Assembly: GCA_001630475.1 (NCBI GenBank)
Contig: KV419402.1
Span: 303,910-367,909 of the forward strand
Reading direction: 5' to 3'
DNA: 64,000 nucleotides
Source: Sistotremastrum niveocremeum HHB9708
Taxonomy: Eukaryota > Basidiomycota > Agaricomycetes > Sistotremastrales > Sistotremastraceae
Numbering within the stretch: the stretch's first letter is position 1; the number at the start of each line of letters is the position of its first letter. A program made the position numbers and the translations under genes. The notes under the pieces are model-generated. The model made no database searches. It was not told the origin of the DNA and saw only the letters and a list, made by a program, of their open reading frames with translations. Shown here piece by piece: positions 1,197 to 23,226 of this stretch.

Positions 1197-1234
1197 CTAA
1201 TTTATTCTTATCCAATAATTGCGTACATAGACTG
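1197..1234 (-). terminator. U1 3' block with poly(A)-like signal
   Basis: The gene strand reads TATGTACGCAATTATTGGAT and then AAGAATAAATTAG, with AATAAA exact. This block matches the other ten in order and spacing. Confidence 0.5.
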
Positions 1235-1894
1235 TCATATTCAACTGCCATCCATACACCCCAACCCTCAATAGTGCACGCCAAAGCATTGAGCCAATTG
1301 ACTGGCGCATAACAGAGCCTGCTACGCGCACCCGCACTTCGACATGAGATCTCATGTTCGTCGATGTGTTCTGACCATTGTAGAGGCGATGCTTGAGGGA
1401 GGGAAAAGTCAGGCAAGAGAATGTTCTCGGTGAAGTGACGACGTACAACGGTACAAGGTCACGGAACTGAACTTCAAGGATCTTTGGATAGCGAGAAACG
1501 TTCGGTGAGCTCCTATGATGTCGAGTCCAGTGACGGATCAATGATGAGTATGTGCTAGTAAGGAACAGCAATGAACGGACGTACGACAGCCTTTGACAGG
1601 TAGTCGGTTTCCACCGACCGTTACCTTCTCCAGCATAAATTCCAGTGACTTGGAAAGTGTTGTTAGCGGCCGTGCAGTGAGACTTGAGAGTTCGAGACGA
1701 CTTACCGACGCACGGTGTTTTAGCCTTCACTAGAGAAGGAGAGTCACAAGACAGATCAATCGGAGTCAGAGTTGCTGCGCCACTACCTCCCAAGGATCAT
1801 GGTCCCCTATTTGCGAGACAATGAGCGAGAGCAAAATATGAGACAAATAGTTATACGTAGGAGATAGGGCTATTAAGGTCTCCAACGAATATGT

Positions 1895-2235
1895 ACTCGC
1901 CATACTCGAGTACTCGTCGGTGAGTACTCGTGATGCGAGGCCGAAGGTCTCGCATCCGAAATTTTTTGAGATTTTTTTTGAGAAAACACTCGAGTACTCG
2001 CGTGTATATTCGCGAGTACTCGAGATCACACAAGTATTTGAGAGTATTCGTACTCGAGTGTCTTCATAGCACTCGAGTACTTGCATTCACGAGTATTTTT
2101 GCATACTCGAGTCGACTTGTCAGACTCGAGTACTTGCTGTTCTTGTTCACACTGGTCGTACTCGAGCCCAGACAGGACTCGAGTTCACACTTGTCGAAGT
2201 CGAGCCCAGACAGGGCTCGACTACTCAAGATCACA
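1895..2235. repeat. left subterminal array of CGAGTACTCG palindromes
   Basis: About ten CGAGTACTCG or near copies (ACTCGAGTACTCG, GAGTACTTG) occur here, then a longer duplicated motif TCGAGCCCAGACAGG at about 2165 and 2203. The mirrored cluster is at 3725-3845. Confidence 0.7.
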
Positions 2236-2249
2236 CCTCACGCAAGCTA

Positions 2250-3470
2250 TCTAATTACTCCGATGTCTCTGCGGGTCGGGTTATCCGGTGCGTCTAGACG
2301 GCGATGGCGGTGGCGAGGCGAGAGGCGATATGACGAGGAGGTTGGTGGTGGTGGCAGTGATGAGGGAGACGATGGTCGAGGGAAGAGGAAGCCCCAATGG
2401 ATGTGGGAAAGGTGATGAGAGAGAATGAGAAATTAGTTGTAATTAGACGAGAGACGAGATGACGGACGTACTTACCTCTCAAACGTTCCCAATAACCTAT
2501 ACATTCCAACCTCCTTCATTTAATGCCGCATTCTGGAGATGGCGGAGAATTGCGATGACGTTGCGAAGTCGATGCAGGAGTCCGCGGCGAACACGAAGAG
2601 TGTAGATATAGGATGTTGGCGGCGACGGTGATGATGATGATGGATATGAGAGAGAGAGAGACGGAGGTTATGAAACGATAGAGACGAGGAGTGAGGGGTG
2701 GGCAGGAGCCGACATCGTTAGAAGACTGTAGAATAATTAGCAACGAATACATGATCGACGATTAAGAACAACGCACCTGTCATTCTGAATCCATCTGACC
2801 ATGCCCTATCTCCAACCCATTCTCCACCTCTCGTCGCGTCGAAGTTGAACATCAAAGTTGAAGAACGTTGTCTGAAAAGAATATGGGTCAGTGAGTGCAT
2901 GCGATTCGATTGAGAAGATGACTTACGGTATCGTCTTGCTCTCGTCCGTGCGATCTTGATTTCGTGGGGGAGTGACTGCGGCATCGCCCTATCCCCAACA
3001 CTAACACTCCTCTCTCAACGTTGAAGAATGTCGTCTAGAAAAGAATATGGGTCAGAAGAAGCACGCGATCGAATGAAGATGGGAGCTTACGCTGTTAGAC
3101 CTGGCACGACTCTCGTAGGTGCGATCTTGATGCGGTCGATATCGAAGTACAGTGTCGAGAGACAAGAGGTGATGGCGGTAGATGAAGAGACGTCGGAGAG
3201 CACACTTAGGTGAGTCGTTGTTGTAATTTAGGCAGCGAGTGTTGACGGATGCGGTCTTGATCCCGTCGTTTGCGATGCGATTCCTCGTGACGGTGGCGAC
3301 AGAGAAGGGGTTGAGAGCGCGTTATTGGAGTGTGATGACGAGGGATGTTGCAGGGGATGTGGATGAAAGCAGAGGGCGACGACGAAGACAAGTCAATGGC
3401 GGCGAGTATGGCGGATGCAGACGAGGACGCGCGAGTACTATACAAGAGCTGATGTAAGCAAGTTGATTCG
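2250..3470 (-). other. gene-like exon-intron remnant inside element A
   Basis: On the minus strand exon-like blocks are separated by GTAAGT...TTTTCAG-type introns of about 55 nt, for example 2874-2928 and 3036-3091. An exon plus its intron is duplicated. I do not recognise a product, and the frames do not join into one convincing protein. This could be a captured host gene fragment or the decayed coding part of the transposon. Confidence 0.3.
2844..3135. repeat. tandem duplication of about 175 bp containing an intron
   Basis: The copies start at about 2844 and 3019. They share GTTGAAGAA, then GAAAAGAATATGGGTCAG, the CTTACG splice donor (minus strand) and GTGCGATCTTGAT in the same order. Both exon and intron parts match, so the duplication is genomic. 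Confidence 0.6.
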
Positions 3471-3527
3471 ATACGAAGGGTGCTACAAGAAAAACGCCCT
3501 ATAAAGCCAAAAAAACCACATTTCTAA

Positions 3528-3716
3528 CTCGACTATCTAGCTCAGCGTGCTTACTCGTGGCATGCTGGGCGCTCGCGACAATTTTGTGGTCGTGAGTTCG
3601 ATTCTCAATGCTGGCCGTCGAAATTAATATTATAATAAATAATAATATATATAGATGTATATAATATTTAAATAATAAAAATAATATTAAATTAAATATT
3701 ATAAATAATAATTAAA
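3528..3716 (+). repeat. tRNA-derived SINE-like sequence with A/T-rich tail
   Basis: An A-box-like TAGCTCAGCG at about 3538 is followed by a B-box-like GAGTTCGATTCTC at about 3597, where TGAG and CTCA can pair around the TTCGATT loop. The spacing of about 50 nt suits a pol III type 2 promoter. About 90 bp of almost pure A/T then follows (3624-3715). A clean acceptor stem is not evident, so a SINE head or decayed tRNA is likelier than a working tRNA. Confidence 0.4.
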
Positions 3717-3724
3717 CTACGAGT

Positions 3725-3845
3725 GCTAGCCGGATACTCGTGAGTACTCGCCGTGAATACCCGTACTCACCGGAAAATGAAATCCTGTAACTCAGTACTC
3801 GCCGGAAGATCCCGGACGAGTACTCGCGCGAGTATACTCGCGAAT
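3725..3845. repeat. right subterminal array of CGAGTACTCG palindromes
   Basis: Copies such as TGAGTACTCGCCG, CAGTACTCGCCGG and CGAGTACTCGCGCGAGTA lie just inside the right end of element A, in mirror arrangement to the left array. Confidence 0.65.
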
Positions 3846-4024
3846 GTATTCTTTTTCCCTATATTCGTTGGATGCCTTAAGGGCTATGTCGCACATTGCC
3901 GTAATGCACTTAGCGCAGAGACCGACGACAAGAATCAGCGAAGGGAGAAATGGTGAATCACGGATCAGAGACATGAGGCAGCGACGACAACGTAATTTTC
4001 TCAGATAGAATAGGACGATCCAAG

Positions 4025-4906
4025 GGAAGCAAGGTCCGTTCAAAGAAATTTAGCCGCCTCCGGCGGTTTTCGACAAATCGAAGCGTCCGGCTCCGGGAAG
4101 AGGCTGACAGATATCCGTGACCTCGGCTTCGTTTCATCTCCGACCGTCTTGGTCTTTGTCGTCGTTCACGACGACGACGCGTCACAGTGCTAGAAAACGC
4201 AAGGTCAGCTTCTTTCCCACTCGATCTATCAACATCTTTGCTGACTTCCTGGGCTGATTTAGCTATCCTCGCTCCCTCGCGGCTGATACGAAAAATCAGC
4301 GCAGGGGTCAACGGACGCGCGTCGGGGTGGCACGAAGACGCGTCCAACGCGTAATAGCTCTTTTGGGGTGGCTGTAAAGGGGGCCGAGATGAACGGAGGG
4401 AGTGGAGAGAGTGAGTTGGACCATGGATTCACGAAAGGCATGGTATTCTCGCTTTTTTCTGTTTTCTGTTTGCCTTTCTCTTCTGTGTTCACTCACTTTC
4501 ACCCTTCAAAAATACATGTAATGGCCCCTACTCACTCTAGACTCACCCTTTCGCTTCTGGCCCATGTTTGAAATAAAAAAAGATACATTTTTCCGGATTT
4601 TATTACTTGAGAGGTGTGAAGATCAATGCAAGGCAGTCCAATAATTCCCGAAAATCAGGATCAAATCAGGACTTCTGCATTATCACAAGACAGCAACCCC
4701 TGTCTTCACATATGCTATACGCGCTGCTGCCAGTTTCTGCCTAGGACGCTGCTCAGATATCTGCAGCCCTGAAGTCTCGCGGCTTCCGAGGAGCCCAAAG
4801 TAGAACTTTCGGTTACGGAGTGAGAGCGTATCTCCGCAGCCGAATGCTTCGATTTGTCCGGCAACCGCCGGGGCGGCTAAATTTCTTTGAACGGACCTTG
4901 CTTCCC
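4025..4906. mobile_element. hAT-like non-autonomous element with long inverted repeats (element B)
   Basis: Inverted repeats of about 80 bp (4025-4104 and 4830-4906) include about 35 identical positions starting GGAAGCAAGGTCCGTTCAAA. The 8-bp direct repeat GATCCAAG flanks the element (4017-4024 and 4907-4914). The 882-bp interior shows no transposase; it has T-rich and A-rich tracts near 4450-4600 and no clear gene. The duplication length points to hAT, though other families with 8-9 bp duplications are possible. It lies inside U1. Confidence 0.72.
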
Positions 4907-4922
4907 GATCCAAGAAGGTGTG

Positions 4923-4980
4923 GATAGATGGGGGAAAGATGGAGGGTAGCGAAGCGATTCGGCCTCCTTTTATACCCCAG
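4923..4980 (-). promoter_or_regulatory. U1 promoter: TATA box plus CATCT tract
   Basis: The gene strand reads GGGGTATAAAAGG at 4966-4978, with CCCTCCATCTTTCCCCCATC just downstream (4927-4946). The upstream element AGGCTTGGCAT (+ strand) is at 5051-5061. Confidence 0.6.
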
Positions 4981-6226
4981 CCGCGGAGCAGCGTCGTCCG
5001 AATCCTCTCGAAAGATGTCGGGGTCGATCGAGAAGAATGAAGGGGAGGAAAGGCTTGGCATAAACATTGACATCGGTGCTTCGGGAGGCCCAGATCTGAA
5101 GATTCTTCACTCGATCTGGAAGGGATCGGAAGAAAGAAGCATGGATCTACGTCCGACGTCTCATCAGCGTTTGTCTCGCGATCGAGAATCACTCTCTCCA
5201 TTCCGAAGATCGAGGAGAACTCAAGATCGGCTTTCCAACCTGTAGGGTCCGCGGCCCACGACACACGCTGAGTGGCCCAATTCTCCCTATTCGACATCGC
5301 ACTTAGAATCTGCTATAAGTTGCGTTCGGCATTTGCCGTACATATGTAACACTTGCAAACTTCTTTCAAACTCCGACTTTCGCCTCCTCGTCCTCCTCGT
5401 TCGTTCATCGTTATTCCGCTCACACTCGTTCATTCGTCATCGACAACTTGTAAATACGACACCATCCCGCTCCTTCACGCATTCCGTACTCGTTCCGCAG
5501 CCTCCAGGCACTAATCCGGTTCCCCTCATCACTTCCACCAATCCCATTCGACTTCGTATATCTTAATTGTTCACCATCGCATCACGCACGCCGTCCTCAT
5601 AAAGCAACATTTCATTTATCATTCCAACCCTCGCCGACGATCTCGCATACTCAACTCGCCTTTACCTCTCTCGACGTCGCCCCCTTCATCGGCCTTCAAA
5701 GGTCAGGGCACTACGACTAGTGGATCAAGACCGGAACTTGTGAGACACGTCGGATAGTCTCAAATGGGTTGGCTTTGCATTTTATGTTTGTTCTTAGGCC
5801 GTTTCATGTATGACCCGTTGTAGCACAGCTAGTGGGTCAATTTATTCATTGTAGACCTCTGGCCGGGTCATGGACTCGATTTCATTGGTTCGTCACTCAT
5901 TGACTCTTTCGTATATATACTATCATGTATTACTTGCTTAGGACACCGAATACTACCCCCATCTTGCGTGCTACTCTCTCTTCCGCGTGACTCTATTTAA
6001 AAATATCCTCTCTCTCTCTTTCTTGTCAACAAACTCTTTCACTCGGGCTTCACACTAAGCGATCTCTGCGGCGAACTATACATTCTTCTAGTCTACTCAA
6101 TTAAAAATCTCTACACAACCATCGATCCGATCTTGTAGATCGAGGCCCGGGCAGTAAACTCTTCATCTCAATTGCGAATTGGGCGAAAAGGTGGGGGATA
6201 GAACAGAGTCCGAGTCCAAGTGACAC
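4981..6226. other. U1 upstream region and unassigned spacer
   Basis: The first 250 bp is U1 upstream sequence resembling that of U3 and U6 (GATCTGGAAGGGATCGGAAG near 5110). A plus-strand TATATATA at about 5912, followed by a CT-rich run near 6006, could be a promoter, but no coding exon follows that I can support. Confidence 0.4.
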
Positions 6227-6262
6227 GATTCGATCACAAAACAATTTATATTCTATCCAATA
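6227..6262 (-). terminator. U2 3' block
   Basis: The gene strand reads TTGGATAGAATATAAATTGT and then TTTGTGATCGAATC. This is one of the best matches to the family consensus. Confidence 0.55.
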
Positions 6263-7110
6263 TCGGTCAAACGAACGGACACGTCGTACGACCCACTAGC
6301 ACCCCGTCGAATGAGAAATCCAAGATCATACTCTCGCAACACCCTAGCATCCAACTGCCCTCCGCAACACTGACCTCGAGGAACTAATCACAACTCTGCA
6401 GCTCCCCGGTCTACCTGCGAAATAGGACCTGCTGTCTTGACCAGCTTTGCTTCGCGTTTAGTGACTCTAATCTTCGGCAGCTGATACAATGATCCAAGGC
6501 ATGTTCCTGGTCCAGGATAGCATAGACGAATTCAGTGCAGAGAAACAACTTGGCCCGAAGCGCTGATAAAATATCGGTCCTCGTGCTTACAGTCCTACGC
6601 AGGATCTGTACCATTTGATGAGCGGCGACGCAGCTAATAGAGGTGCCTGACATGAATAATGGCGGAGCAAGCAAGGATCATAAATAACGTACGCGAATTT
6701 GGGACGAGTCCGACCCCGAAGAGATCGACACGCTCAATACAATCTGTAAGAGGACATAATGATCCCGCAGATTGCGTGATGATATCTCTCAGAGAGGAGG
6801 ATACAACCTGCATGCTCCATCATCATGAGCTCAAAGGAAACGAGGCCGAGCTTACTAGGTCCGTTATGACGCATAAAAAGTGTTGAACGGATGAGAAAGC
6901 TGTTGTTCCGAGAGCTGGTCCAAAAGGTATACACATGTCAGATGAAAATCAGAACAGCAAAGACGAAGCACGTACTCGTTGCAGCCATATATGTCCCGAT
7001 TCGTCTGCTACTGCTTCGTGCCATAGTGCGCGGGTGTTCAACGGGATGACTTTCGAGAATGGTGTCGGTGGATACAAGATTGTCGGACAGGATAGATACT
7101 GAGTGGAAAG

Positions 7111-7178
7111 TTAGATGAAGTTAGATGGGGGGAAGATGAGGATTTTCTCACCGAGGTCTCCTCCTTATATACACCAGC
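7111..7178 (-). promoter_or_regulatory. U2 promoter
   Basis: The gene-strand TATA box GTATATAAGGAG is at 7161-7172. CATCTTCCCCCCATCTAAC follows at 7117-7138. The upstream element GAGCTTGGCATC (+ strand) is at 7255-7266. Confidence 0.65.
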
Positions 7179-7180
7179 CT

Positions 7181-7685
7181 CCTCGTCGCCCATGATCGGA
7201 ATAATCGACCCGAGATTTGAAGCGGGAGGGCGATTCGGAAGATGGTTCTGGGTTTGAGCTTGGCATCGTGGGGAACATATCGATCGAGATTTGCATCATC
7301 GAGGTTCTCAGAGACGTTCAGGAAGAATACGGGGGAACAGAGCTTCTATACAGGTGGGGCCTGTGATCGAAGATCTTGTCTCAGTTCGGGAGAATCGAGA
7401 AAGATTGACAGCCGGCGCCCACCGATCACCGATCATCGACCCATTCTGAATCTCAGCCTCTTCATCGAATTATCGTCCGAGCGAGAAGCTTCCCTGTCGG
7501 ATCCGCGGGTGAAGAAGATTCGGGGCCGACACGCTAAACGCCCAAGCTCAGATGGGCTAGAAAATAGAGAGAAAATTCCGAGAGACCCATACGACAATGG
7601 GAGAGACTGGGACGTACTCTCTAGATGTTGTCATTGAGTTCTTCCGTATCAAACGTCGATCGAGAGTTTGAGCAGAGACTCAGAT
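7181..7685. promoter_or_regulatory. divergent intergenic region between U2 and P1
   Basis: There is no gene in these 505 bp between the U2 TATA box and the P1 block. It contains repeated GATCG and CGGAAGA motifs and the GCTTGGCAT element. Confidence 0.4.
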
Positions 7686-9123
7686 GACGCCAAACACGGC
7701 CAAACACGGAAAATTGGCTATATACCATTTCGAACTCCGCTCTGTCATGACAAAAAATTGTTGTCGTTCGCGAGCGTCGTTGGAAGCCTGATGTCTGCAA
7801 TCTTGAAATCTCACAGACGTTCCTCCGTAAGCTCGTTTCTATCCCCTATCTTCCAAAGATATCAACAAGCTTACGAAATTTCCAGTGATTTCAGTCTCGC
7901 AACCACTTCAGGTTTTCCAATATTTCACGCTGCGTTCGTGACCTTACTCCCTAGGATGTCAGCTTGATAAAGCATCAGTAGAGGCATGTACATTTGCCGC
8001 ACCGAACTCAGTCTTCGTGATACTGAGCTAGTTCTGTAGCGTTGGCCTGTGCTGCGCGGTTGGACTCAATTCTAAACGAGATGCATCCATCCAACTCTTC
8101 TCAAGGCGATCTTGGTCATATAAACGATCTGAATCCTAGGCGATCTGAATCCTCCTCATCTTTCAGATGATAATGCTTCACGTTCCTCGTTCCGCTCAAG
8201 TCACCTCTTCTGTCCTCCAACAGCAGTCCGGGAGCCGTAGCCCTCGATCCCCCAAGACTCCACTCATCGGGGACTCTTGTACATCCCTTTTCCATCTAGT
8301 CTTGTATCCTGTCTGACATCTATGTAATTCAAAGGCTTCTACGACTTCGACTTGACGCTTTCGACAGAGCTAGATGCGTTGCCTCTCTGCCACGTGTCAA
8401 ATCCATCGGACGAATACTTGATACGAAAGCAATGGCACATATAGGATAGTGGGAAGGTTGGGAGATGATGCTTCTCTGAGCTATCGTTCGCCCTTGTCTT
8501 ACGCCTGCTCCTTTCGTGACCATTTTCCGTTTCGCTGACGTCTTATTCTATCCTATTCCAGACCCGATTTTTCCTAAAACAAAATTCATAGTGCTGCTCT
8601 GATATCTCTAGCGTCACTGCCTGCCTCAGTGTCATACTCGCCTCGTCCATCACAACTGCGGCTTGCATTCGAATGCCTCGGGTCTATGGTCCACAAGCAT
8701 ACACCCCATAGAAGGGACTGTCAACCTCGCATTATCAAGGATCGGTCGTCTGACGAAGCTCTCCGTAAGATGCTTAAATCACATGCCGGCCTTACCTAGG
8801 ACTCTTAACTCAGCACTAGGACATAGCCTCAAGATGTGACCTCGCACTGTCAACAAATTTCTAAGATATGTCGTCTGATAGGAATTGTCAATCGCTTCAG
8901 GCGTACTAGCACACGGCTGATTCTGGATGTCCTGTACTTTTTTGTTTCCGTGGAAAAGACAAGTTGAAGCTCGCTGCAGAATCGGGAACGGAAAGGATCG
9001 TTTCCCATGCTGAGCTTCGGGAATGAATTTTGGATATAATGTGCTTGCTTCCATCATCGGTCATCCAGATCCGTATACATAGTTGTGCTCGTCGGCGTGT
9101 TAGTTCCGACAGAAGCCAGGCTA
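7686..9123 (+). other. P1: possible divergent plus-strand unit beside U2
   Basis: It opens with the P block (7686-7750): GCCAAACACGGCCAAACACG, a TATA-like GGCTATATACC, then CGAACTCCGCTCTGTC. An intron-like GTAAGC...TTTCCAG lies at 7827-7885. No product is recognised downstream. The segment runs up to the U3 3' block, so the two would converge. Confidence 0.35.
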
Positions 9124-9172
9124 TTCGAACATAAAACGATTAATTCTGTATCCAATAAGTACATACAACGAC
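9124..9172 (-). terminator. U3 3' block
   Basis: The gene strand reads TATGTACTTATTGGATACAG and then AATTAATCGTTTTATG, one of the more diverged copies. Confidence 0.45.
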
Positions 9173-9940
9173 TCCGCATCAAGACCACCACAAATATTCG
9201 ACCTTCCACAGCTTTGATCAACCGAATGAAAGTGATCTTATACCCAATCGACGATACCCCCAATACACCTGTCACTTCCTTCCTTACCAACTTGAGTAGT
9301 TCTGTGTAAAATCTTGAGTCACTCCCGAATAGCCTTTGTAAGGAAAAATGAGAATGCGGATTGTGCAGTGAAGGACGAGAACTTACGTAGACGTAGGGAG
9401 GTGGGGTGACAGATTTGTGAGGTCTTCCTTTCTGGCCTTCCGTTCGCTCTGAATAGAGACCTTAGCGATTGAGTCACGGGCGGAAATGACGTTGACATAC
9501 TACTAAACTTCCCTCACAAAGACAACCCGGTCACTTTACACGGAGCGAAGGACTTGTGCAAGCTATCATGAAATATCAGTCGAAAAGTCACAATATGGCA
9601 TGAAACCAGAGACGACCTACGTTCCAACATCCACCGCACGACAAGGGAAAGGAAATCACCGTGACGCCGACATGCCTTATCAATAAAATGATACATGTCA
9701 GTGAAATGAATAAAAGATGAGATGCGGCATGAGATCATACTTTCGGAGATCGTAAATCTAATGAGTGTCATCAACGCCGTGATGCCGGCTTGGACTATTT
9801 CAAGAGCGGCGATGAGGAGTGAAGATGTTATTGACCAGAAGAACCCGATAAGTGACAAGGTGGGCCATGACGAGGGCGAAAGAGAAAAAGCATAATAGAA
9901 ATTGAAGAGAAATAAATTTTATGATGGAAGGAAAAATCAA

Positions 9941-10010
9941 GAAGATGGGGAAAGATGGGGGAAAGATGGAGATTCGAACAGTCATTGGTCTCCTTATATA
10001 CTCGTCGGAG
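9941..10010 (-). promoter_or_regulatory. U3 promoter
   Basis: The gene-strand TATA box GTATATAAGGAG is at 9991-10002. Two CATCTTTCCCC repeats follow (9941-9972). The upstream element GGGCTTGGCATCGG (+ strand) is at 10076-10088. Confidence 0.65.
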
Positions 10011-10329: not shown

Positions 10330-10377
10330 TTCGATCACAAAAGATTTTATATTGTATCCAAAGTACGCATATACGAG
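10330..10377 (-). terminator. U4 3' block
   Basis: The gene strand reads TATGCGTACTTTGGATACAA and then TATAAAATCTTTTGTGATCG. Confidence 0.5.
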
Positions 10378-11065
10378 CCTGTATTGAGCGACAAATTCGA
10401 ACAAACCCCAGCTCTTCTTCACCACGACGAACACACTCTCCCCCAACTTAACCCCTCCCTCCATAGCAGATACAGGACAAGACTCTGATAACACACACAC
10501 TGTCCCTTCTCGGGTAGCAAGATTCCTGCTAATGCATGCTGTAATGAGAATAATTACAGAATTAGTCAAGAGACAAAGCGGGAGTTGGGAACACGTACAG
10601 TCCACGGTCGGGATGTCTCCAAAATTACGACTGGTTGCGTCATTGAAGGAGAAAAACGCGAACTGAATAAATTCAATCAGGCAAAGTGTGTGCTCGTAAG
10701 AACAAAATAACACATACGGGATTCCCTACGGTTCGCCAGACCAACTTCAACAAACAAAGCAGACGCATACAAGACCAAAACCGAGGACAGAGGAACAGGC
10801 ACTGGGACGACTTTCTGCATCCTTTGCAAAAAGTCAGCCGATGCGTAGATCACGAGGACGCAGCACAAGAGATATCACGTACTGGTCGAAACGACCATAT
10901 GCACTACTCGTCAATCATAGAAGATGTCGCGGCCGTGGATGGCTGGGACTTGCACACGGCAACGTGTACGGAGAGGGAGCACACTCGACTAGAATTATAC
11001 ATGGTTGGGAGATCAAAACCAAGAAAGTGATATGGGCACGAAACGGAAAGTCTGTCGTACAGATT

Positions 11066-11122
11066 AGAATAGATGGAGAGGAGATGGGGAAACGGACACT
11101 TGCTTCTCGGTCCTTATATACT
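11066..11122 (-). promoter_or_regulatory. U4 promoter
   Basis: The gene-strand TATA box GTATATAAGGAC is at 11111-11122, then CCCCATCTCCTCTCCATCTA at 11071-11090. A TTGGCTTGGCG (+ strand) is at 11363-11373, further upstream than in other units. Confidence 0.6.
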
Positions 11123-11542: not shown

Positions 11543-11593
11543 ATTTCGATCAAAAAAGAATTTATATTCTACACAAGACACGCATACAAACAC
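11543..11593 (-). terminator. U5 3' block
   Basis: The gene strand reads TATGCGTGTCTTGTGTAGAA and then TATAAATTCTTTTTTGATCG. Confidence 0.5.
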
Positions 11594-12090
11594 TCCTGCA
11601 TTGAAGGCGCGAGATGAGAGCCTGTTGGTACTCCTCTACGAGATTTTTGCAGACACATCTACGCACAAGGTGGCGAGGGTAGTAGACGAACTGTACGACT
11701 GAGGATCAGTACTGAAAACAGCGTAGTCGAACTAGATCACATTCACCTCTCTCAACATCCACCTATCGCCTGGTCGGTCTTGACCATGCCCAAACGAACT
11801 AGAACAAACCCAACGGCAGCGGCGAGATTGAGAATGGTAAACGAGGTATCGCTGTTTTTGAATGGTCCTTATCAACCGGTTAAAGATTCAACCAGGAAAG
11901 AGGTGCATGGCGCTCACCAGGTATGCCACTCTCAGTGACTTCGAACTCGCATCAGATATCCCGAAATCCAATGTACTATTGCATCAGGCAACGAAGTCAG
12001 CAGTGGCCTCGAGGAGTGGATCGGATGCGGAGACGAACCCATGCGACGAAATCGATCTAACAAACGGCCAAGAAAATTATAGGGAGGAGA

Positions 12091-12148
12091 TGCAGATAGA
12101 TGGGAGTAGATGGCGATTCCAGAAGAATTTCTCCTCCTTATATACTGC
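12091..12148 (-). promoter_or_regulatory. U5 promoter
   Basis: The gene-strand TATA box GTATATAAGGAGGAG is at 12131-12145, and CCATCTACTCCCATCTATCT follows at 12094-12113. Confidence 0.62.
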
Positions 12149-12152
12149 AGGC

Positions 12153-12670
12153 TTGACGAACGGAGTTTGAGGACCGGATCTGTGCTCGCTCAGAATCGAC
12201 GAGCATCTTCTCGGTCGATCGATCGATCATCGACCATGAGTCCCGACGGAATCAAATGTTGTTCGAGGCATCAAGGGGATGATCGGGAGGATCTCCGTCG
12301 ATCGTCGATGGTTGGCCAAGGGGTGGAGTCAGCGAGTAGTCAGCGATCTTCGGAACGGGCAAGTGTTCTCCTAATGCGGATCCTATTCAGAATTATCGAG
12401 CGCGATCAATCCAGTTGATGATCGAGCTCACCTGAACATCGCGATCTTCTCGGAATCATCACAATGTGTTCTCATGTGCTTCATAGAGCCGTTGGCCCGT
12501 TGCAAGGAGCTCAGTTTTGGGCTACAGGCGCTAGCTTCAAGAAACCGACGTGGTTTGTGAATTCGAAGGACGTTGGAGGGAGAGGAGATCGTGGCAGATT
12601 TTCCAACCCACAGATGGCTTAATTTCGGCGACTTCTTCGGTGTCCAGGATAGAATGAGAGGTTGAGACGA
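12153..12670. promoter_or_regulatory. divergent intergenic region between U5 and P2
   Basis: No gene is seen. The 518-bp spacing between U5 and P2 matches the other three U-P pairs. Confidence 0.35.
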
Positions 12671-13919
12671 CGAGAGCGCCAAACAGGTGCAAATCCAAAA
12701 CAATCCGACGAAATATTCTCTTTGAAACTCCGCTCTGTCGTCGTTTCTTTCACTGGCTGTTTCTTCATGCTCATTCTCTGTCTTTGATCTGGTAGTCTGC
12801 GGAGAACATCAATTCTACCTGTTTCTGTGATCGATAACGAAGATCGACCTGTGTCTGAGACCGCAGTGAGTTGACAGGTTGCATCGATAACGACGATAAC
12901 TGACTAATTCTGAGTGCTCTCTTCTAGTGCATACGTCTGGGGCGAGCCTCAAACCTTGGGATCAGGTTTCACAGCAGCAGAAGTCTTCCTCAACGTTTCC
13001 AGTACGCAGTTTCCTTTCCGATAACCTTGCGAGGAGCTGAGCGCAGCACAGCTTCATCGATTTTCTTGTAGTTGCCTCGTTCTCGTCCTCTTGAAGATGC
13101 ACACACACTCTCTCTCCTAGTTGTACGCAAACCAGAGTGCGAAGAAGACTCACACATTGAGCTCATCAAATTTTCGAATCTGAAGGCGGCTTCTTGTGGC
13201 GACCTCTGCCTTATTCGGCGTGTCCTGGTTGGCTGTATCGGCGACATCTCTGTCTTCCTGCACCGTGACTCGTGGATTCAATATATAAACCTTCCTGTCA
13301 AGATATGTCGCGTTTGACATGGCGGCATTGCAACGAAACTTGTCCTTCCAACGCAAACTCCCTCGCCTCTCCGTGATGACGTGGCTTTTCCTAGTATCGA
13401 CGAACTTCGTGTCGTGCTGAAGCTGTATAGCAAATTCACCTCAAGATACCGGAAGCTGTCATCTGCTTCTATGTCTCATCACGATTCGACTCTTTGACGA
13501 ATTCTGCTTACTTGTATGGCATGCCTCCGACTATGGTGAAATCTTCAACTGTCCTCGTTCTAGCTCCGTTCTGTCTTCTCGATATTCCCCTGATTGTTCT
13601 CTTCCGACCGCTGGTCTCACATGTACGCGTCAACAATTCCGTCTAATTGTAACGGTCAGTCTTCGGCATTCAGCCAACGCATTGATGCTCAAAGATGTCC
13701 CTCTGAGACACTGTTCCATCATCCACGTCTCACCTACTGCGGCTTCTTGTGGACACTCAATTCCGCATCAATCAAGTTCGACTTTCGTGATAGAACGACT
13801 CCAAGCTCTCAGCTGTCATATCGTGTCGACGTTATCAGGCTAATATCAGCAGTGTCGATGGCGTTTCTAGACTGCGTTTCTTGGATCGGTTGTAGCCCGT
13901 CTCTTATCAACGATGGTGT
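12671..13919 (+). other. P2: possible divergent plus-strand unit beside U5
   Basis: The P block is at 12671-12740 (GCGCCAAACAGGTGCAAATC, then AAATATTCTCTTTGAAACTC). An intron-like GTGAGTTGAC...CTTCTAG follows at 12866-12927, starting 195 bp from the block, versus 197 bp in P4. TTTCTGTGATCGATAACG before it is also shared with P4. Downstream frames are short (for example 13072-13317), and no protein family is recognised. Confidence 0.4.
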
Positions 13920-13970
13920 TTCGATCGTAAAATCATTTATATTCTATCCAACTTGTACTACATATATATA
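13920..13970 (-). terminator. U6 3' block
   Basis: The gene strand reads AAGTTGGATAGAATATAAAT and then GATTTTACGATCG. Confidence 0.52.
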
Positions 13971-14961
13971 CAATAGCTCCGAGATTTCCTCATAGATCTA
14001 CTCAGAAAATCGAATACTCGTCTCGGAAGACATACCGACGTCATCCTGCCATGCTCTCGCACTAAGAGACCCTCCGCGTTACCATATCTGATACGTATGC
14101 GACCATTCTGACCACTCCAAACAGCCATCTGAATTGAGAAGGTCAAAGAAAGCAGACGGGAGGAAAAGCACCGACGTACATAATATCTGCGTACGCAGGG
14201 CGGTGATGGAGCGCCGGATCGAGGGTTCGCAGTACAGCTGTTCCATTATCACGTACTACAGAGAAAGCCAAAGTTGCTGGTGATGAGTTTCTTTGAGTAA
14301 CAGGATGGGTGATCTAGACACACCGTGACCGAAAATGCCGGTCTGAGCTCGGCACTCTCGTCCTACGCGGACACGTCTGCAAGCGATAGCTAATTGCTCT
14401 TTTCTCCACGACTTAAAGGAGCTCGTTCACAGACAGCCGAGGTCCTTCATCCTGGATATGATTTTCAAGATTGAATACAAGAATGAAAAGAGGTCACATA
14501 CTTCGCAAGCACTATGATGCCAACCTTTCCGGGAGCGAAGAGACAATCGGCACAGGACCTAACACCGATTATGGGTTCGAGCAGATGAAATATGATAGAG
14601 TGCGACAGACCTTTCACTAATCACTTTTCACTTACAAGAGCACGCGCCGAGGCTCTCTGGATCGGAGAAGACACTGTGCGTCGTTTTGAAGACCTCGGGG
14701 GATCATCTCGTCTGCACGAGGTAAATGAGGACACAAAAGAAATATCAACCGCGGGATAAAGTACCTCAGTGGCAATGTGTTTTTGCCAGTGAGGAGAGCT
14801 TGCGCATGCCGCATACATATAGGCCACAACCATATTTGGAGGGAGGTTCGTATCGCGCAAGATATAAACGAAAGATGGCATGGGAAAGATTCGGGGGTGA
14901 CCTGGCAAGACTTAGACGCAGGCAGAGGGTGGAGACTGCGAGATGTCGTCTAGGTGAAAAC

Positions 14962-15032
14962 AAGAAGATAGAGGTAGATGGGGGAAAGATGGCGAATCGA
15001 GAGGGAGTTGGGCTGCCTTTATACTCTCCCAA
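14962..15032 (-). promoter_or_regulatory. U6 promoter
   Basis: The gene-strand TATA box GAGTATAAAGGCAG is at 15014-15027; CCATCTTTCCCCCATCTACC follows at 14974-14993. The upstream element is diverged to TTTGGCTTCGG (15118-15128). Confidence 0.6.
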
Positions 15033-15340: not shown

Positions 15341-15372
15341 ATTCGATCACAAAATATTATATATTCAAAAGA
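15341..15372 (-). terminator. U7 3' block
   Basis: The gene strand reads TTGAATATATAATATTTTGT and then GATCGAATTG, shorter than in sister units. Confidence 0.5.
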
Positions 15373-16177
15373 AGAGAGAGCCCTTTTACTGTGTCCGGCT
15401 CAGTTCTGTACCTGGCGATTGGGTCTAGAGGAACAATGACGTATCAATATCTAGCCCAGGCGACCCTCTCGTTAGACCTTATTGCCACTGTAGAATCTAC
15501 CTTCACTCGAGCGCAACTGGACCGGGCATCAGCTCCGAACCTCACAAGCAACGCAGCCATCCTTCCAAAGGATTGAGAACTGTATGAGAGATCTTCAGAA
15601 GAGATCTTGAATGAGAGATTTATCAAAGTGTACGTACGCTATCTGAATGCATTACGTGCGGAACAGTAGGCTGATAGATCCACTGCAAGGACCGAGTTGC
15701 GCTCCTGAGAGTGCCATCAGTGAGCTGTAGATGGAGATAGAACTGGAATGCTACGGAGAAGACTAACCTCAAAACCAGAGATAAAGCGTCGGAACGAGCT
15801 CGGACCACAAGAGATAGTACTCACTTCGTCTCCGGGTGGTATATTGGACAGGCAGTCGGTGCGATTACGTCGAGTCTCGATGGAGGTAATCAACCAATGA
15901 AAGACGGAGACTGAACGCGGGAATCAGAAGATGCACCGAAAAACGAGACAATAGGATCAAATGAGTCACTTACCCATGGCGTAGAGTCAAGAGTTTGTCG
16001 AAGAGATGGACGGATGCAGAGACAAGGACGAAGACAGCACTAGTAACGATTTCGACAGGCAGTCACAACCTCTACGTGGTTAATCCAAGATCTTGGCAAT
16101 CAAAATCTCGATGGCGGGATGTTCGAGTCTCGGGGACGCCACGAACCACGACCACAAGATCAAAGTCTAATGTAGCA

Positions 16178-16246
16178 TAGATGCAGATAGATAGAGGGTA
16201 GATGGGGGATTTGCGACTGATTCCTCCTCCTTATATACTCCAGCTT
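16178..16246 (-). promoter_or_regulatory. U7 promoter
   Basis: The gene-strand TATA box GGAGTATATAAGGAGGAGGA is at 16223-16242, followed by CCCCCATCTACCCTCTATCT at 16189-16208. Confidence 0.65.
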
Positions 16247-16745
16247 TCATGGCGCCGCGATCGAAACGGGAGCGATCCTCCCGACGATTCAATTGAAGGG
16301 ACGAGCCGGAAGACAGAGGAGTAGATGGGGAGAAAGATCGAGACGTTCAAGGATCGAGATCGGATTAGCGATTGCGAGGCATCCGGGGGAAACAAGGTTC
16401 CGTTGAAGACGGAGATCGAAGCGCCTGCCATCGGAGAAGTCATCTCAGTTCGGAGGATCGAGAGAAGAAATGCTTGGCAGCCACCGATCGTATTATTCCT
16501 AATAAGGCGAATTCGAGTCTACTTTGAGCATCCCCTTGAAGCAGGAGGTCCTGACGTACCCGCGAGGATCGAAAGATTTTCGGGTCGTCCCGAAAATCAC
16601 GTTTTTCATTCTGATTGAAGGGCGCAAAATTCAGCAGAAAATATTCAGAGGGTCAGAGTCATTCAGGTATATGTGTTCGTCGTTTTCGATGAGTTCCACG
16701 GTGTTGAAAGCGTGATACGAGATCAAGGAGAGACTTGAGAGGACA
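16247..16745. promoter_or_regulatory. divergent intergenic region between U7 and P3
   Basis: No gene is seen in these 499 bp. GATCGAGA motifs and a TGCTTGGCAG near 16470 are present. Confidence 0.35.
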
Positions 16746-18276
16746 GGGCAAAACAGGAACAAATCTGAGAAAAAATCTTTTGGCATCCATTCAAACTCCG
16801 CACCTGTGCAGTTCACGTTTAGCAAATTCATCACGACCTCAACGCCTCCACCTTGACGGCTCAAGAAGCTTGCTGGTCCTGCGTGTCTATCACAAGGTGG
16901 TCCACAACGGACATTTTGCCATCAACCCGCACTGAAATCAAGCGATGGTCCGTGCAATTCACGGTTTTGTTACTGCTAGGTACTCAGGCTCTTATAGCAC
17001 GATGTACATTCTTGCGAGCTATTTTCACGCCGTGTTTACGTCCGACCGACATCTCCGCGACTGCCTCAGGTATGTTTTCTGGGCATCATACTGACACAAT
17101 CTCCAGGTTCAAATTTTCATTATATGCCACGTAGACGGGCGTTGTGTTGCGCAGGAGGAATTTCGATTATACACCCTTAAGTCTTTTTGTCATTGAAAGA
17201 GCCTCCCGGCGTATGTCCCGGCGTTGCGTTCGGTCAGATTTTCTTACTCAGTCCAGGATTCTCAGCTGACGCGTTGTTTATAGGATTCGACGCGCTATTC
17301 GACAAATATTGATAAGGCCCTCGACTTTCAGTGATGAGAAATGCGTAGACATCCTCGGTGCGTGTTTCCCCAGTACATTCTAGACTATGCCTGACTTGTC
17401 CTAGGCTTCGACGGTTCACTACCTCATGATATAGCCCTGGACAGGCATCTTCGAGCCAATCTTCTTCAGGGCTTCAAGTCATTCGTAGGCTCCGCAAGAG
17501 TCACGTGTAGATTATCCCTGACATCTCAAGTCTACCCCACTAGTCCTCAAATTTATCGGACTACGGTTTCGACCGACTACCTCACCAGATACGGAAAACC
17601 TGCGGGGCGAAGTCATGATACAGATAGAGATACTCGTGCATAGTAGGGTCTTACAGAGATGTGCTCATCCAGTAGAGCTTCAACCTCGTTGCCGTACGCC
17701 TCGTCTCATTCTTCCATCTCATTTCGTATTGATCACAGCATCCTCTAGGTCAAGTTATTGTCTTCGTATGGTCCAGGAACCCTCTTATCCTAGATTCGCT
17801 GCTTTCCTCTCCCCGTCGCTGTGATGAACTCTTTCCTAAGATGTCTGACGCTCGTATCTATGCGTTGTACGGGACCTGTGGAGGTGGCTTCAAGAGTCAA
17901 ATTTCTGGTTGGACTTTCCTGAACGTTGTGCTTCCGTGGACCGGATGTTTCGATTCTGCCTCTCGGATTCCCGTTCGTATTCTCGACGTCGTCTCTCGAT
18001 CTAGCTCTTCACCTTTGGCTTCACGGGCTCCCCTACCTGGACTCTCTCGATTACATCTTTGATCATTTTTGTTTTGAGTTGTCTGAAGCGCAAATGCGAT
18101 CTGTCAGACACGTTTGATATGTGGTCGTTACTAAAGAACAGATCAACATAGAATTGAATATCGAACCTCGTCATGTGCAATCTGTACAATAAAGACGACT
18201 ATGTTACCGATATGCTCAGCGTTCACCTTCGTCAATTTGGCATTACTTGCCGTTATCTAAGTAACAGGCACCTTTT
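16746..18276 (+). other. P3: possible divergent plus-strand unit beside U7
   Basis: The P block is at 16746-16805 (GCAAAACAGGAACAAATC, then TTCAAACTCCGC). A frame from ATG at 16945 reads MVRAIHGFVTARYSGSYSTM and reaches an intron-like GTATGT...TCTCCAG (17069-17104), closing at TAG soon after. Further GT-AG blocks exist. No family is recognised. Confidence 0.38.
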
Positions 18277-18328
18277 ATTCGAACATAAAAAATTGATATT
18301 CTATCCAATAAGTGCATACATAGACTGA
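18277..18328 (-). terminator. U8 3' block
   Basis: The gene strand reads TATGTATGCACTTATTGGAT and then AGAATATCAATTTTTTATG. Confidence 0.53.
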
Positions 18329-19141
18329 GACAGAAGTCGAAAAGCTATCCAAATGGTCAACAATCTTCTAACACTACACCGATTGACTCCAGCACGCAGA
18401 GTACCAGTGCAAAGACATGAATAGATTTGGAAGGATGCCACAAACCCGCTTATTGATCATTTAATTGAGCGATGACAGTTGACCACTGTATCGGAAGTGA
18501 AGGGCTCAGAACCGATTGATCAAGCAGAGGCCGGGAGATGGACTTACAGAAATGCCGAGGGTATACGAATCAAATATGGATGACCCCGGTAGCCGTTGAG
18601 TCAGTTGTTCGCTATGAGCACACCGAATATAAGAGATGTTAAATCAAGATGGAAGAAGGATAACGTACTGGTATTCTCCGCCGAATACACGAAGCTCTCA
18701 GGCACCCCAAAGATATATCCACGTAGGTTTCTCAATTGCCTTGTGGACCTTTGTTCAAGTCAGAATGGATACTATGAGGCATTGAATAATATTCGCTTAC
18801 ATGTTTTTCTTCGGGCCTTTGGGTGCGACCGATCGAAAGAAACCACTTTAATCATTACGAAGTCCCCCATGTCTTGATTGGGCTGATGGAAAGTGATGAG
18901 TGAGAAGAAAATCAATTTTGAAGGATTAGATATGCCGTACCTCAGGACAAGAGCTGTACCAGTGTACCTGTCCTGCGCAATCTCGTGATCTTCCGATAGG
19001 CAGCTACAGGTTCCGATTCATGGTCCGAGTCGGTGAGGCAGTCGGTGAGAGGGAAGAGACGATGGGGACTGAGAAAGGGACACGGGCGGGGAGAGGAGGA
19101 TGCCTCGAGGATCTTCGGGGCTAGAATGTGAGGAGAAATAC

Positions 19142-19212
19142 AAGAAGGTAGAGGTAGATGGGGGAAAGATGGGGAGCATTGAACCGATGTTGTCGTCCTT
19201 TTATACCCCAAG
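19142..19212 (-). promoter_or_regulatory. U8 promoter
   Basis: The gene-strand TATA box GGGGTATAAAAGGACG is at 19194-19209; CCCCATCTTTCCCCCATCTA follows at 19155-19174. The upstream element GTCTTGGCATC (+ strand) is at 19308-19318. Confidence 0.63.
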
Positions 19213-19531: not shown

Positions 19532-19576
19532 GTTTCGATCAAAAAAATATGTTATGTTCTATGCAAGACGTGCCTG
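19532..19576 (-). terminator. U9 3' block
   Basis: The gene strand reads CTTGCATAGAACATAACATA and then TTTTTTTGATCGAAACC, the most diverged copy. Confidence 0.42.
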
Positions 19577-20280
19577 CGCTACCTCGCCTCCAGGGAAAGC
19601 ATACACTGAAAATGCTTTGAAATTACGAAAAGCCACCACTACTTGGTACACTCGCGTTTTGAGTTCTTCCCAATCGCCACACATGACCTACCATGGCACA
19701 CGCCCTCGATTACCACGACACCTCTCCCTATCTTGCTGGCTCATCGGAAGCAATGGACGAGAGCAACATGATAATAGCTATATGCAACGTCCGATGTCAG
19801 TATGATAATATAATGAAAGGCGCTGATAATGGCACAAACTTACGATGTGCTAAACTCCAACTAGTGCAGCCACCCCATCACAGCAGAAAGTGGTAGGGAT
19901 TTCTGTGTATCTCGTTAATCAATCGCAAGACGAGGGAAAGAAGCAGCAACAAACCTGGGGGGTAGCTTGTCTGTAGCAATCGCCGTAATATATTTGCAGT
20001 GGCCTGGAGATGGTCACCAACGTTGGGATCAGCGGGATTAGAGAAGAGATGAGCGTCTTACAGAATAGCACTAACTCCCAGACGGACATCATCCCGATAT
20101 GGAAGGGCTACCATGACGAATGTTGAGAGTCAGAGTGGCGATCTCGAGATTTAGAAGTGAGGTGGAAATGTGAGTGAGTGGAAATGATCCGAGCGTCATG
20201 CGACGTGCTGGATGAGAGAGTTGGCGTGGGAAGTGCAGCGACAAATGAGAATCCGGTCGATAATCAAGACGCTTGGTCGA

Positions 20281-20348
20281 ATAGATGCGAGTAGATTGAA
20301 AAGAGATGGGGATTTTCGATTTCGTTCCGTCTCTTTATATACCGCAGT
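20281..20348 (-). promoter_or_regulatory. U9 promoter
   Basis: The gene-strand TATA box GGTATATAAAGAGACGG is at 20327-20343, then CCCCATCTCTTTTCAATCTA. The upstream element AAGGCTTGGCGG (+ strand) is at 20434-20445. Confidence 0.6.
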
Positions 20349-20851: not shown

Positions 20852-20903
20852 GTTCGATCACAAAATATTTCATATTCTATCCAAAAGAAGCATACAATGA
20901 CTA
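20852..20903 (-). terminator. U10 3' block
   Basis: The gene strand reads TTGGATAGAATATGAAATAT and then TTTGTGATCGAACT. Confidence 0.53.
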
Positions 20904-21792
20904 AGGTACCCCGAAAATCCTGACTGAGCAAAATCTGGCAACATTAAGCAGAACTCCTTTATCCGATCACCAAAACATTCCCTCCTTTTCATTCCGGAAA
21001 TCGCAGAAATCGCTCACGCCTTCTCTCCCTGGATATGTACTCAGCCTTCTACCGCATCTTGAAGACCCACATTGCGAGCACTCGTACGCAATTTATCTGC
21101 AGTGGCCCACTCATCAACGGTTGTAGGAGCTGTCAACCCTATATGCGAGTTTCTGGTATCAGTATGTGAATAGATCATTTCGTAAGGTGGAGACTTACGA
21201 TGTTTTCTGCCCCAAACTCGCGACAACCTGCAAAACCCACACGGTCCATGATCCTCCGCGAATTCTGAATCAACCTTGTCAGCGGATAACGAAAGGTATT
21301 GTAGAGGAAACCACGCACTCGGTGTGAGTCCTGTCTTGCACGTGGGAAGGTAGAGACGTGGGGAAGACCTGGGGGACATTGACGATGTATCAATAAGTGC
21401 TGATGGAATTGAGAAAGAAACTCACTTTATCTACGAGTTTAACTGATGATATCCCAAACTTCGACGACCATGAAGACCGAGTTCAGGGCCGATGAGTTTT
21501 GTCTCGAAAAGGCTCTGGAGATGATGTGCGGTCTGGACACTTATGACAAGTCCCGATCAGTATATAGCCTGAAATTGAACGGTTGCGCTTACAATAATCC
21601 ATATCTTCTTAATTGAGACTGCAGGATGTGGGGGCGGCTTCGAAAAACAAGTGTCCGCGAGCAACGACATCGAATCTCCACGTCCTTGATTCGGCGAAGA
21701 GTGTTCCATGTTCAAAGTATCCTCCAAGGACGGATGGTGTGGGGGGTTTAGTCAATGGCATTGGCACTGCCTTAAAAGCAAGACACGGCGCG

Positions 21793-21862
21793 GAATAGAT
21801 GGGAGTAGATGGGGATTAGATGGGGAATTCTCAGCCTGTTTGCCCTGCTTATATAGTGCAAT
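21793..21862 (-). promoter_or_regulatory. U10 promoter
   Basis: The gene-strand TATA box ACTATATAAGCAGG is at 21844-21857; CCATCTAATCCCCATCTACT follows at 21804-21823. The upstream element AAGCTTGGCAAA (+ strand) is at 21943-21954. Confidence 0.62.
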
Positions 21863-22239
21863 TCTGAGAGCCGACGATGTCGGAAGAAATCATCCCGATG
21901 ATTGAATGGAAGGAGAGATTCGGAGAATAATTATAGAGTTGAAAGCTTGGCAAATCTGGCTGGGCGTAGATCTTCCCGATCGTCGGGAAGAGCAGGAGTT
22001 CGCAGATCAAGAGGAGTCATTTGAATCGAGAAGATTGGAGGAAAAGAAGAACTGCATGGGATCCGCCGATCGTCGGAATCAGTTTTTCCGGACTGCTCGA
22101 TCGAATTCCTTCCGCAGAGGCAAGACCTGACCTGTCAGGCCGACGATCCGATCGTTGCGCGTCCTCCGAGTTTTGCTTCCGATGATCGGACCTCAGCGAC
22201 GATCGAGTCGATTCGGAATCGGACGTTCGTAGGCCCAAG

Positions 22240-22288
22240 ATTCGATCACAAATTGGCTTATATTGCATCCAAGAAATGCTCGATATAC
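22240..22288 (-). terminator. U11 3' block
   Basis: The gene strand reads TTGGATGCAATATAAGCCAA and then TTTGTGATCGAATC. Confidence 0.5.
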
Positions 22289-23159
22289 TCCCTCCCGTCG
22301 CCAGTAACTACATTGCGTCAGAGACCAATAACAGCATCCATTGTGACTATGGGTGCATCGAGTTCGTACCAGACTTGGAATGGACGATGCACGTAAAACC
22401 TCAACGCAAGACAACATCGATCGCATATCTGAACCTTTGAACCTTTTCACGACGTATTGTCCTTCGTTTGCCAGATGTGTGACTGGGCATGTCCTGGTCC
22501 TAGTAGAAAATTATTCGGATGTTATCTGTGCATATACGTGTACTCACCTTCGCAAGATGTCGATGTCATAGGGATTCATTGTGCGCGCGAAGCCTGGAGA
22601 TACATGCGATCGAACCTGAAATGGTTCTGCAGCTTCATTCACCATCAGGTGATATAGAAAGAGATTGAAAGGGAGAACGCACGAGTGTCACATTATCGGT
22701 CAAGTGAGGTGTGATTGCAGATCCACATATATTCTGGAAAATCATATTCAGTCATAGATCCAGACAGCAACGTGCCCAACGAGACATACTCACGACAGAG
22801 AGGTTGAGCACGATGTTGGATCTATCCCAAATGGGGGGTTCGTACAGACAGATTTCGACCAGGATTGAGAGGACCATGGGATGCGGAACCGAGGGCGGAA
22901 AAAACGGGGTAGAAGTAGATGAAAATACGAGTTTCTTCGACCATGCGAAGGGGCAAGCTATAGTATAAGGCATTCGTAGTGAAGAGAGTATAGATGTAAC
23001 GTAAATCATGAAGACTTACGAGGAATATATTTCAAAGGCAGGTGCAGAACCTAAGTCGAGGTTTGATGCAAGAGAAGAACAACGAGAACAACTTATTTCG
23101 AGGACAATGACGAGGTCAGGCACACCTGCCGAAGACCATAAAGAGATAATCGTATCCAA

Positions 23160-23226
23160 ATGAAAGATGGGGATAGATGGGATGAGATGACGAGCCTGGA
23201 ATTGTTTCGCCGCCTTTTATAGAGCA
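23160..23226 (-). promoter_or_regulatory. U11 promoter
   Basis: The gene-strand TATA box CTATAAAAGGCGG is at 23210-23222, then CATCTCATCCCATCTATCCC at 23169-23188. The upstream element GTCTTGGCACC (+ strand) is at 23311-23321. Confidence 0.6.

What the first reader, a model, noticed from the sequence alone, without database searches (positions are those of the whole stretch)
1197..23226. Eleven co-oriented units with conserved promoter and 3' end but divergent bodies
All eleven have a TATA box, a CATCT/CCCC tract and a 3' block with AATATAAAT-like signal and TGATCGAA, always on the minus strand and in this order, 0.6-1.1 kb apart. The bodies, although full of intron-like signals, hardly align. 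This could be a co-regulated family of fast-evolving small proteins, a non-coding RNA family, or an array kept alike at its ends by gene conversion. I know of no described family with this layout.
Basis: partly seen in the sequence, partly recalled or inferred. Interest (0 to 1): 0.86.

Follow-up and report, generated by a model that had tools for sequence, protein, structure and literature searches.

The report
Gene-like array conserved at its ends
In DNA that looks fungal, eleven related gene-like units in a row keep their start, splice and end signals but share almost no sequence in between, as if being switched on and processed matters more than the message itself; no RNA data were available to show that they are transcribed.

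Summary
Eleven minus-strand units (a-k) lie between 1,192 and 23,221. Leave-one-out profiles recover 11 of 11 core promoters and 11 of 11 3' blocks, and nothing in 24-64 kb scores better than E 0.3. CATCT starts 32-34 nt after the TATA start in 11 of 11 units and often recurs about one helical turn further on. The 400 bp upstream are rich in CGATCG. Bodies align like shuffles but carry sense-strand splice signals.

New: the units form four modules (abcd, ef, ghi, jk). First, middle and last units have different promoter subtypes, and each module has a head element. So a multi-unit module was duplicated. Unit k is split by two transposon-like inserts.

Best reading: tandem genes for short spliced RNAs, with regulation and processing constrained and exon sequence nearly free. 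Coding evidence is mixed: one ORF test gave combined p 0.0037, a more flexible one p 0.13, and no shared protein was found. Fast-evolving small proteins remain the main rival. Organism, genome and transcripts were not available.

The parts
22248..23221 (-). unit a (first unit of module 1), TATA to 3' block
20860..21855 (-). unit b (middle unit, module 1)
19541..20341 (-). unit c (middle unit, module 1)
18285..19205 (-). unit d (last unit, module 1)
15349..16237 (-). unit e (first unit, module 2)
13927..15023 (-). unit f (last unit, module 2); weakest intron signals (one strong intron)
11552..12144 (-). unit g (first unit, module 3), shortest
10337..11120 (-). unit h (middle unit, module 3)
9131..10000 (-). 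unit i (last unit, module 3)
6236..7171 (-). unit j (first unit, module 4)
1192..4974 (-). unit k (last unit, module 4), split by two insertions
   Evidence: promoter and 3' block profiles; introns in the 3' part; insertions
4024..4906 (.). insertion in the leader of unit k: inverted arms of 82 nt (66 of 82 identical) flanked by the same 9-mer on both sides; Mutator-like by repeat length (recalled)
1873..3880 (.). second insertion in unit k: inverted ends of 20 nt (90%) flanked by the same 8-mer on both sides; hAT-like by repeat length (recalled)
23693..23785 (-). head element of module 1 (leave-one-out match)
   Evidence: E 1.2e-6
16682..16802 (-). head element of module 2
   Evidence: E 3.6e-6
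12623..12744 (-). head element of module 3
   Evidence: E 6.5e-14
7627..7747 (-). head element of module 4
   Evidence: E 1.3e-10

Best explanation
A tandem array of eleven paralogous, co-oriented transcription units, produced by repeated duplication of a first-middle-last module. Shown by sequence: each unit has a TATA box, a CATCT-containing start region about 33 nt downstream (often repeated at about 10-11 nt spacing), an upstream region dense in CGATCG/TCGATC, several short GT-AG intron signals in the body, and a distinct 3' block (TTGGATA..AATATAA..TTTT..GATCGAA). Inferred: a shared DNA-binding regulator on the CGATCG sites switches the array on together; RNA polymerase II starts at the CATCT; the RNA is spliced and cut at the 3' block, giving RNAs of roughly 0.4-0.8 kb with no conserved reading frame. 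Selection keeps expression, splicing and 3' end formation, while the exon sequence is nearly free to drift. The act of transcription or processing, or sequence-independent properties of the RNAs, would then be what matters.
For: Core promoter and 3' block recovered in 11 of 11 leave-one-out runs. Bodies at shuffle level while core and 3' block are above it (0.564/0.556 body, 0.665/0.549 TATA+90, 0.648/0.550 3' block; 45 pairs of ten units). CATCT at +32 to +34 in 11 of 11, at +42 to +45 in 9 of 11, at +52 to +54 in 7 of 11. CGATCG 4.77 per kb upstream against 0.20 per kb in 24-64 kb and 0.39 in bodies. Intron signals on the sense strand, antisense 0 in 9 of 10 units. No Pfam match at the curated cut-off for 10 candidate ORFs; no similarity among 8 candidate proteins (28 pairs, best z 2.2) and no GC1>GC2 codon signature in the four validly framed candidates (differences 0.00-0.03, against 0.08-0.17 in five long ORFs of the window). 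Flexible ORF test p 0.125. Upstream conservation in the last-unit class is not codon-periodic and has frame-breaking indels. First, middle and last units differ as subtypes in upstream (p 0.0026) and leader (p 0.0014).
Against: No transcript, no second species and no whole genome were available. With fixed intron chains, four units (a 169, h 134, j 152, km 146 aa) have ORFs across 2-3 introns longer than expected, combined p 0.0037 over 11 units; three of the four (a, h, km) run on past the 3' block. Five of 11 units have a frame open across all internal exons. Only 5 of 10 units exceed all 60 shuffles in intron score, and the weaker introns were picked by hand. 3' blocks do not follow the subtypes (p 0.18). 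No RNA structure signal (fold z -0.70 to 2.21 in 11 units). The neutral rate of divergence was not measured.
Confidence: 0.5

Rival explanations
1. A clustered family of very fast-evolving small proteins (roughly 50-170 aa, several introns), co-regulated, whose coding parts have diverged beyond recognition; some members may be dead.
For: Fixed-chain ORF test: a, h, j, km at p 0.003-0.020, combined p 0.0037 over 11 units. Unit b also gives a 143-aa frame across four introns if a weak alternative donor is chosen by hand. Clusters of fast-evolving small proteins are common in fungi (recalled).
Against: Flexible-splicing test p 0.125; c, d, e, f and g at or below the null. No codon-position signature and no similarity between candidates. 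Intron phases worked out by hand from the exon lists disagree between units. First-ATG frames range from 5 to 152 aa (read by hand). One sub-threshold Pfam hit only. Three of the four long ORFs pass through the 3' block.
Confidence: 0.25
2. A decaying array of pseudogenes whose ends happen to look alike still.
For: No shared ORF; unit k is split by two insertions; unit f has weak splice signals.
Against: Neutral decay would erase ends and bodies at the same pace. Ends and splice signals persist while bodies are at shuffle level, and the conserved columns are motif-like.
Confidence: 0.13
3. Ends held alike by gene conversion or recombination, with bodies free.
For: Tandem co-oriented copies allow it.
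Against: Ends are only moderately alike and subtype-specific by position in the module; conversion would give long near-identical tracts.
Confidence: 0.05
4. Ends of a transposon or LTR-like family with varied cargo.
For: TATA near one end and an AATATAA block near the other recall an LTR; real transposon-like inserts lie in unit k.
Against: Eleven of 11 in one orientation with module order first-middle-last, no inverted repeats pairing unit ends, no copy in 24-64 kb at E below 0.3. The rest of the genome could not be searched.
Confidence: 0.07

Closest known systems
Intergenic lncRNAs whose constraint lies in regulation but not in transcript sequence (Chen et al. 2016, PMC4739325; passages seen)
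   Same: Conserved promoters with poorly conserved exon sequence. [quoted passage not shown]
   Different: There: single mammalian loci compared between species, with RNA evidence. Here: eleven paralogues in one array, probably fungal, compared with each other, without RNA evidence, and with a marked start region and 3' block.
Clusters of small secreted (effector-like) protein genes in fungi (recalled)
   Same: Tandem, co-oriented, short, several small introns, fast divergence.
   Different: No common ORF found, no shared residues, candidate ORFs lack the codon-position signature. Signal peptides were not tested with a tool.
RiPP precursor families such as MSDIN genes of Amanita (recalled)
   Same: Paralogous short genes with conserved outer parts and a variable middle.
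   Different: There the conserved parts are peptide leader and follower; here the conserved parts are promoter and 3' end and no conserved peptide was found.
snoRNA host genes (recalled)
   Same: Pyrimidine-rich start, spliced RNA with fast-evolving exons.
   Different: Introns here average 59.7 nt over 39 picked introns and no Rfam family reached its gathering score in the window.

Membership tests
Regulation-constrained lncRNA loci | Transcribed, capped, spliced RNA | not testable with these tools
   No RNA data; only promoter, splice and 3' signals
Regulation-constrained lncRNA loci | Promoter conserved | tested here: met
   Among paralogues only: 11 of 11 leave-one-out
Regulation-constrained lncRNA loci | Exon sequence not conserved | tested here: met
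   Body identity equals shuffles; mean z 0.34 over 45 pairs
Regulation-constrained lncRNA loci | No coding capacity | tested here: inconclusive
   p 0.0037 for long ORFs; p 0.125; no codon signature
Small secreted protein gene cluster | A reading frame shared by the members | tested here: not met
Small secreted protein gene cluster | Signal peptide | not tested
   No signal peptide tool was run
Transposable element (TIR, LTR or SINE type) | Terminal repeats or target-site duplications at unit ends | tested here: not met
   two inverted pairs in 1-24 kb, neither pairing the two ends of a unit; target-site duplications at units not searched separately
Transposable element (TIR, LTR or SINE type) | Dispersed copies | tested here: inconclusive
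   None in 24-64 kb; genome not held
snoRNA host gene or other known structured RNA | Match to a known RNA family | tested here: not met
   Rfam 0 matches at gathering score
RiPP precursor family | Conserved leader or follower peptide | tested here: not met
   No similarity among 8 candidate proteins

The most novel reading that the evidence does not exclude
Probability: 0.35. Interest if true: 0.8.

Novelty: new variant of a known kind. Interest (0 to 1): 0.58.

Why it matters
If the units are transcribed, this is a natural experiment with eleven paralogues on what is selected in a non-coding gene: the act and processing of transcription, or the sequence. Such classes are known from single mammalian lncRNA loci compared between species (PMC4739325, passages), where alignment of orthologues is the difficulty. 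An array of paralogues with sharply marked starts and ends makes the question testable by removing or swapping bodies. If they turn out to be coding, they would be a family of proteins whose members cannot be recognised as relatives by sequence, only by their promoters and ends, which gives a practical way to find such genes. The module structure gives a relative order of duplication against which body divergence can be measured.

Tried and rejected
Coding frames: three tests. (combined p 0.33) was flawed because ORFs without a stop before the 3' block were dropped; one search corrected this (p 0.0037); one search allowed flexible splicing (p 0.125). An early simple gene finder gave nothing convincing. 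Pfam: 0 families for 9 of 10 candidate ORFs, one hit below cut-off for the tenth. RNA structure: fold z -0.70 to 2.21 for 11 spliced models against mononucleotide shuffles; no consensus structure for leader or 3' block. Rfam 0, tRNA 0 with the bacterial setting. Exact 3' block pattern in viral contigs: 0, not a fungal collection. Papers: eight searches seen as listings gave no title describing such an array; only passages of PMC4739325 were read. A CGATCG-binding fungal regulator was sought once (two papers listed, not read). A coding origin of the conserved upstream DNA was rejected because substitutions are flat over codon positions and indels break the frame.

Gap regions between modules: three of the four compared resemble one another (DE-IJ z 7.5, FG-IJ z 6.5, DE-FG z 3.8; A_up weaker at 2.7 or less), with loose gap costs and triplet shuffles; only the head element was confirmed by leave-one-out profiles.

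In one search the exon set used for unit h was out of frame (its translation holds a stop), so h is left out of the codon-position comparison; the five comparison genes are long ORFs, of which one (53100-54020) has a Pfam match.
Full report
What is there. The window is eukaryotic DNA, probably from a fungus (short introns; window ORFs with JmjC, amino acid permease, calcineurin-like phosphoesterase and phenol hydroxylase dimerisation domains). The organism was not established and its genome is not held. Between 1,192 and 23,221 lie eleven units, all on the minus strand. Each starts with a TATA box and ends with a block close to TTGGATAGAATATAAAT..TTTTGTGATCGAA. Ten are 593-1097 nt from TATA to 3' block.

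More than chance. Leaving out each unit in turn, profiles of the other ten find it in 11 of 11 cases for the core promoter (E 1.1e-7 to 4.3e-14), the longer promoter (3.5e-9 to 2.8e-24) and the 3' block (0.002 to 3.2e-11). The best non-member is E 0.72 or worse for the core and 0.55 or worse for the 3' block. For the longer promoter it is 0.069 or worse in 8 of 11 runs and 3.2e-4 to 5.8e-3 in 3 of 11, always at one CGATC-rich place upstream of unit c. In 24-64 kb no promoter or 3' block match was better than E 0.3. The strict TATA-CATCT pattern occurs 9 times against 0.02 expected.

Start region. CATCT begins 32-34 nt after the first T of the TATA box in 11 of 11 units, again at +42 to +45 in 9 of 11, and at +52 to +54 in 7 of 11. 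Paired CATCT at this spacing occurs 15 times in the window, 14 at units, against 0.61 expected. The first copy lies where a TATA box would place the start of transcription (general knowledge); the spacing of about one helical turn is an observation without a tested meaning.

Upstream. In the 400 nt upstream of eleven TATA boxes CGATCG occurs 21 times (4.77 per kb), against 0.20 per kb in 24-64 kb and 0.39 in bodies; TCGATC 34 times against 1.8 expected. Unit a is the exception, with few sites. This looks like a field of binding sites for a common regulator; that is inference.

Bodies. For ten units (k left out), 45 pairs: matches per length 0.564 in bodies against 0.556 shuffled, 0.665 against 0.549 in TATA+90, 0.648 against 0.550 in the 3' block, 0.595 against 0.560 at -330 to -100. 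Local alignment: mean z 0.34, best a-e 3.8 and b-c 3.6. Yet the bodies carry intron signals on the sense strand: chain scores 3.0-11.9 against shuffle means of 1.2-2.7, above all 60 shuffles in 5 of 10, antisense zero in 9 of 10. Thirty-nine introns picked with some judgement in eleven units average 59.7 nt; +5 is G in 37 and +6 is T in 32 of 39 (picking favours such sites). First donors lie 196-280 nt after the TATA start in the ten units that could be measured.

Modules. By position the units fall into four groups: abcd, ef, ghi, jk. Labelled first (a, e, g, j), last (d, f, i, k) and middle (b, c, h), pairs of one label are more alike than others upstream (mean z 6.6 against 2.7, permutation p 0.0026), in the leader (11.2 against 6.4, p 0.0014) and weakly in the body (0.97 against 0.24, p 0.03; only the 3' part of k used), but not in the 3' block (8.5 against 7.8, p 0.18) (I set the labels after seeing the leaders, though they follow position). 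The two pairs with the best body alignment, a-e and b-c, are same-label pairs. A further block, GAGCGGAGTTTCAAA with flanks, lies about 450-600 nt upstream of each first unit and of no other unit; leave-one-out profiles find it in 4 of 4 cases (E 1.2e-6 to 6.5e-14, best non-member E 0.65 or worse). So a module of head element plus first-(middle)-last units was duplicated, and the bodies then diverged almost completely while the ends did not.

Unit k. Its promoter (4974) and 3' block (1192) are 3.8 kb apart because of two insertions: 4024-4906 with 82-nt inverted arms (66 of 82 identical) and the same 9-mer on both flanks, and 1873-3880 with 20-nt inverted ends (90%) and the same 8-mer on both flanks. 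What remains adds up to about 0.9 kb, a normal unit length (arithmetic).

Coding or not. For coding: with fixed intron chains and 200 nt allowed beyond the 3' block, a (169 aa), h (134), j (152) and km (146) exceed shuffles at p 0.003-0.020; the other seven do not; combined p 0.0037. In five of 11 units a frame stays open across all internal exons. Against: with flexible splicing the combined p is 0.125; three of the four long ORFs run through the 3' block; four validly framed candidates have GC1-GC2 of 0.00-0.03 where five long ORFs of the window have 0.08-0.17; eight candidates show no mutual similarity (28 pairs, best z 2.2); intron phases, worked out by hand, disagree; and Pfam gave one sub-threshold hit for 10 candidates. 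I read this as non-coding more likely than coding, not as settled.

How it would work. The pattern (ends and splice signals kept, exons at shuffle level) is hard to get by neutral decay, which would erode ends equally, or by gene conversion, which would leave long near-identical tracts. It fits selection on being transcribed, spliced and ended. The nearest published idea is the class of intergenic lncRNAs in which constraint is on regulation but not transcript sequence (PMC4739325, abstract and passages seen). Here it would appear as a paralogous array. Transcription itself, the regulator and the function are inferred.

Limits. No RNA, no relatives, no genome. The library searches (eight, listings only) found no description of such an array, which is weak evidence of absence because many papers are not held.

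Noticed in passing
16420-18230, 12320-13870, 7350-9080 (and weaker 23480-25300): The long gaps between modules resemble one another along their length (z 7.5, 6.5 and 3.8 for the three pairs of the first three). Their plus strand has the T-rich make-up of the unit sense strands and a few plus-strand intron signals: perhaps a divergent second family.
   Followed up: partly
4024-4906 and 1873-3880: Two transposon-like insertions in unit k, Mutator-like and hAT-like by flank duplication length (recalled); no transposase was sought.
   Followed up: partly
2872-3091: Inside the second insertion two successive intron-like stretches, 164 nt apart, are 70% alike, as if an intron with its exon edge had been duplicated.
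   Followed up: no
1895-2237 and 3734-3846: Many copies of the palindrome CGAGTACTCG near both ends of the second insertion, like subterminal repeats.
   Followed up: no
39948-41270: Long ORF on the plus strand with 12- and 24-nt repeats giving an Asp/Ser/Gly-rich tract; no Pfam match.
   Followed up: no
52668-54020 and 55976-57725: Two plus-strand ORF groups that look alike by eye; 53100-54020 matches the phenol hydroxylase dimerisation domain, the second was not scanned.
   Followed up: no
41866-43314 and 44631-46145: Two long plus-strand ORFs that look like relatives by eye; neither has a Pfam match at E 0.01.
   Followed up: no
5080-6236: The spacer between units j and k is 1262 nt, where the other last units have 326-337 nt; no repeat ends were found in 4800-6400.
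   Followed up: partly
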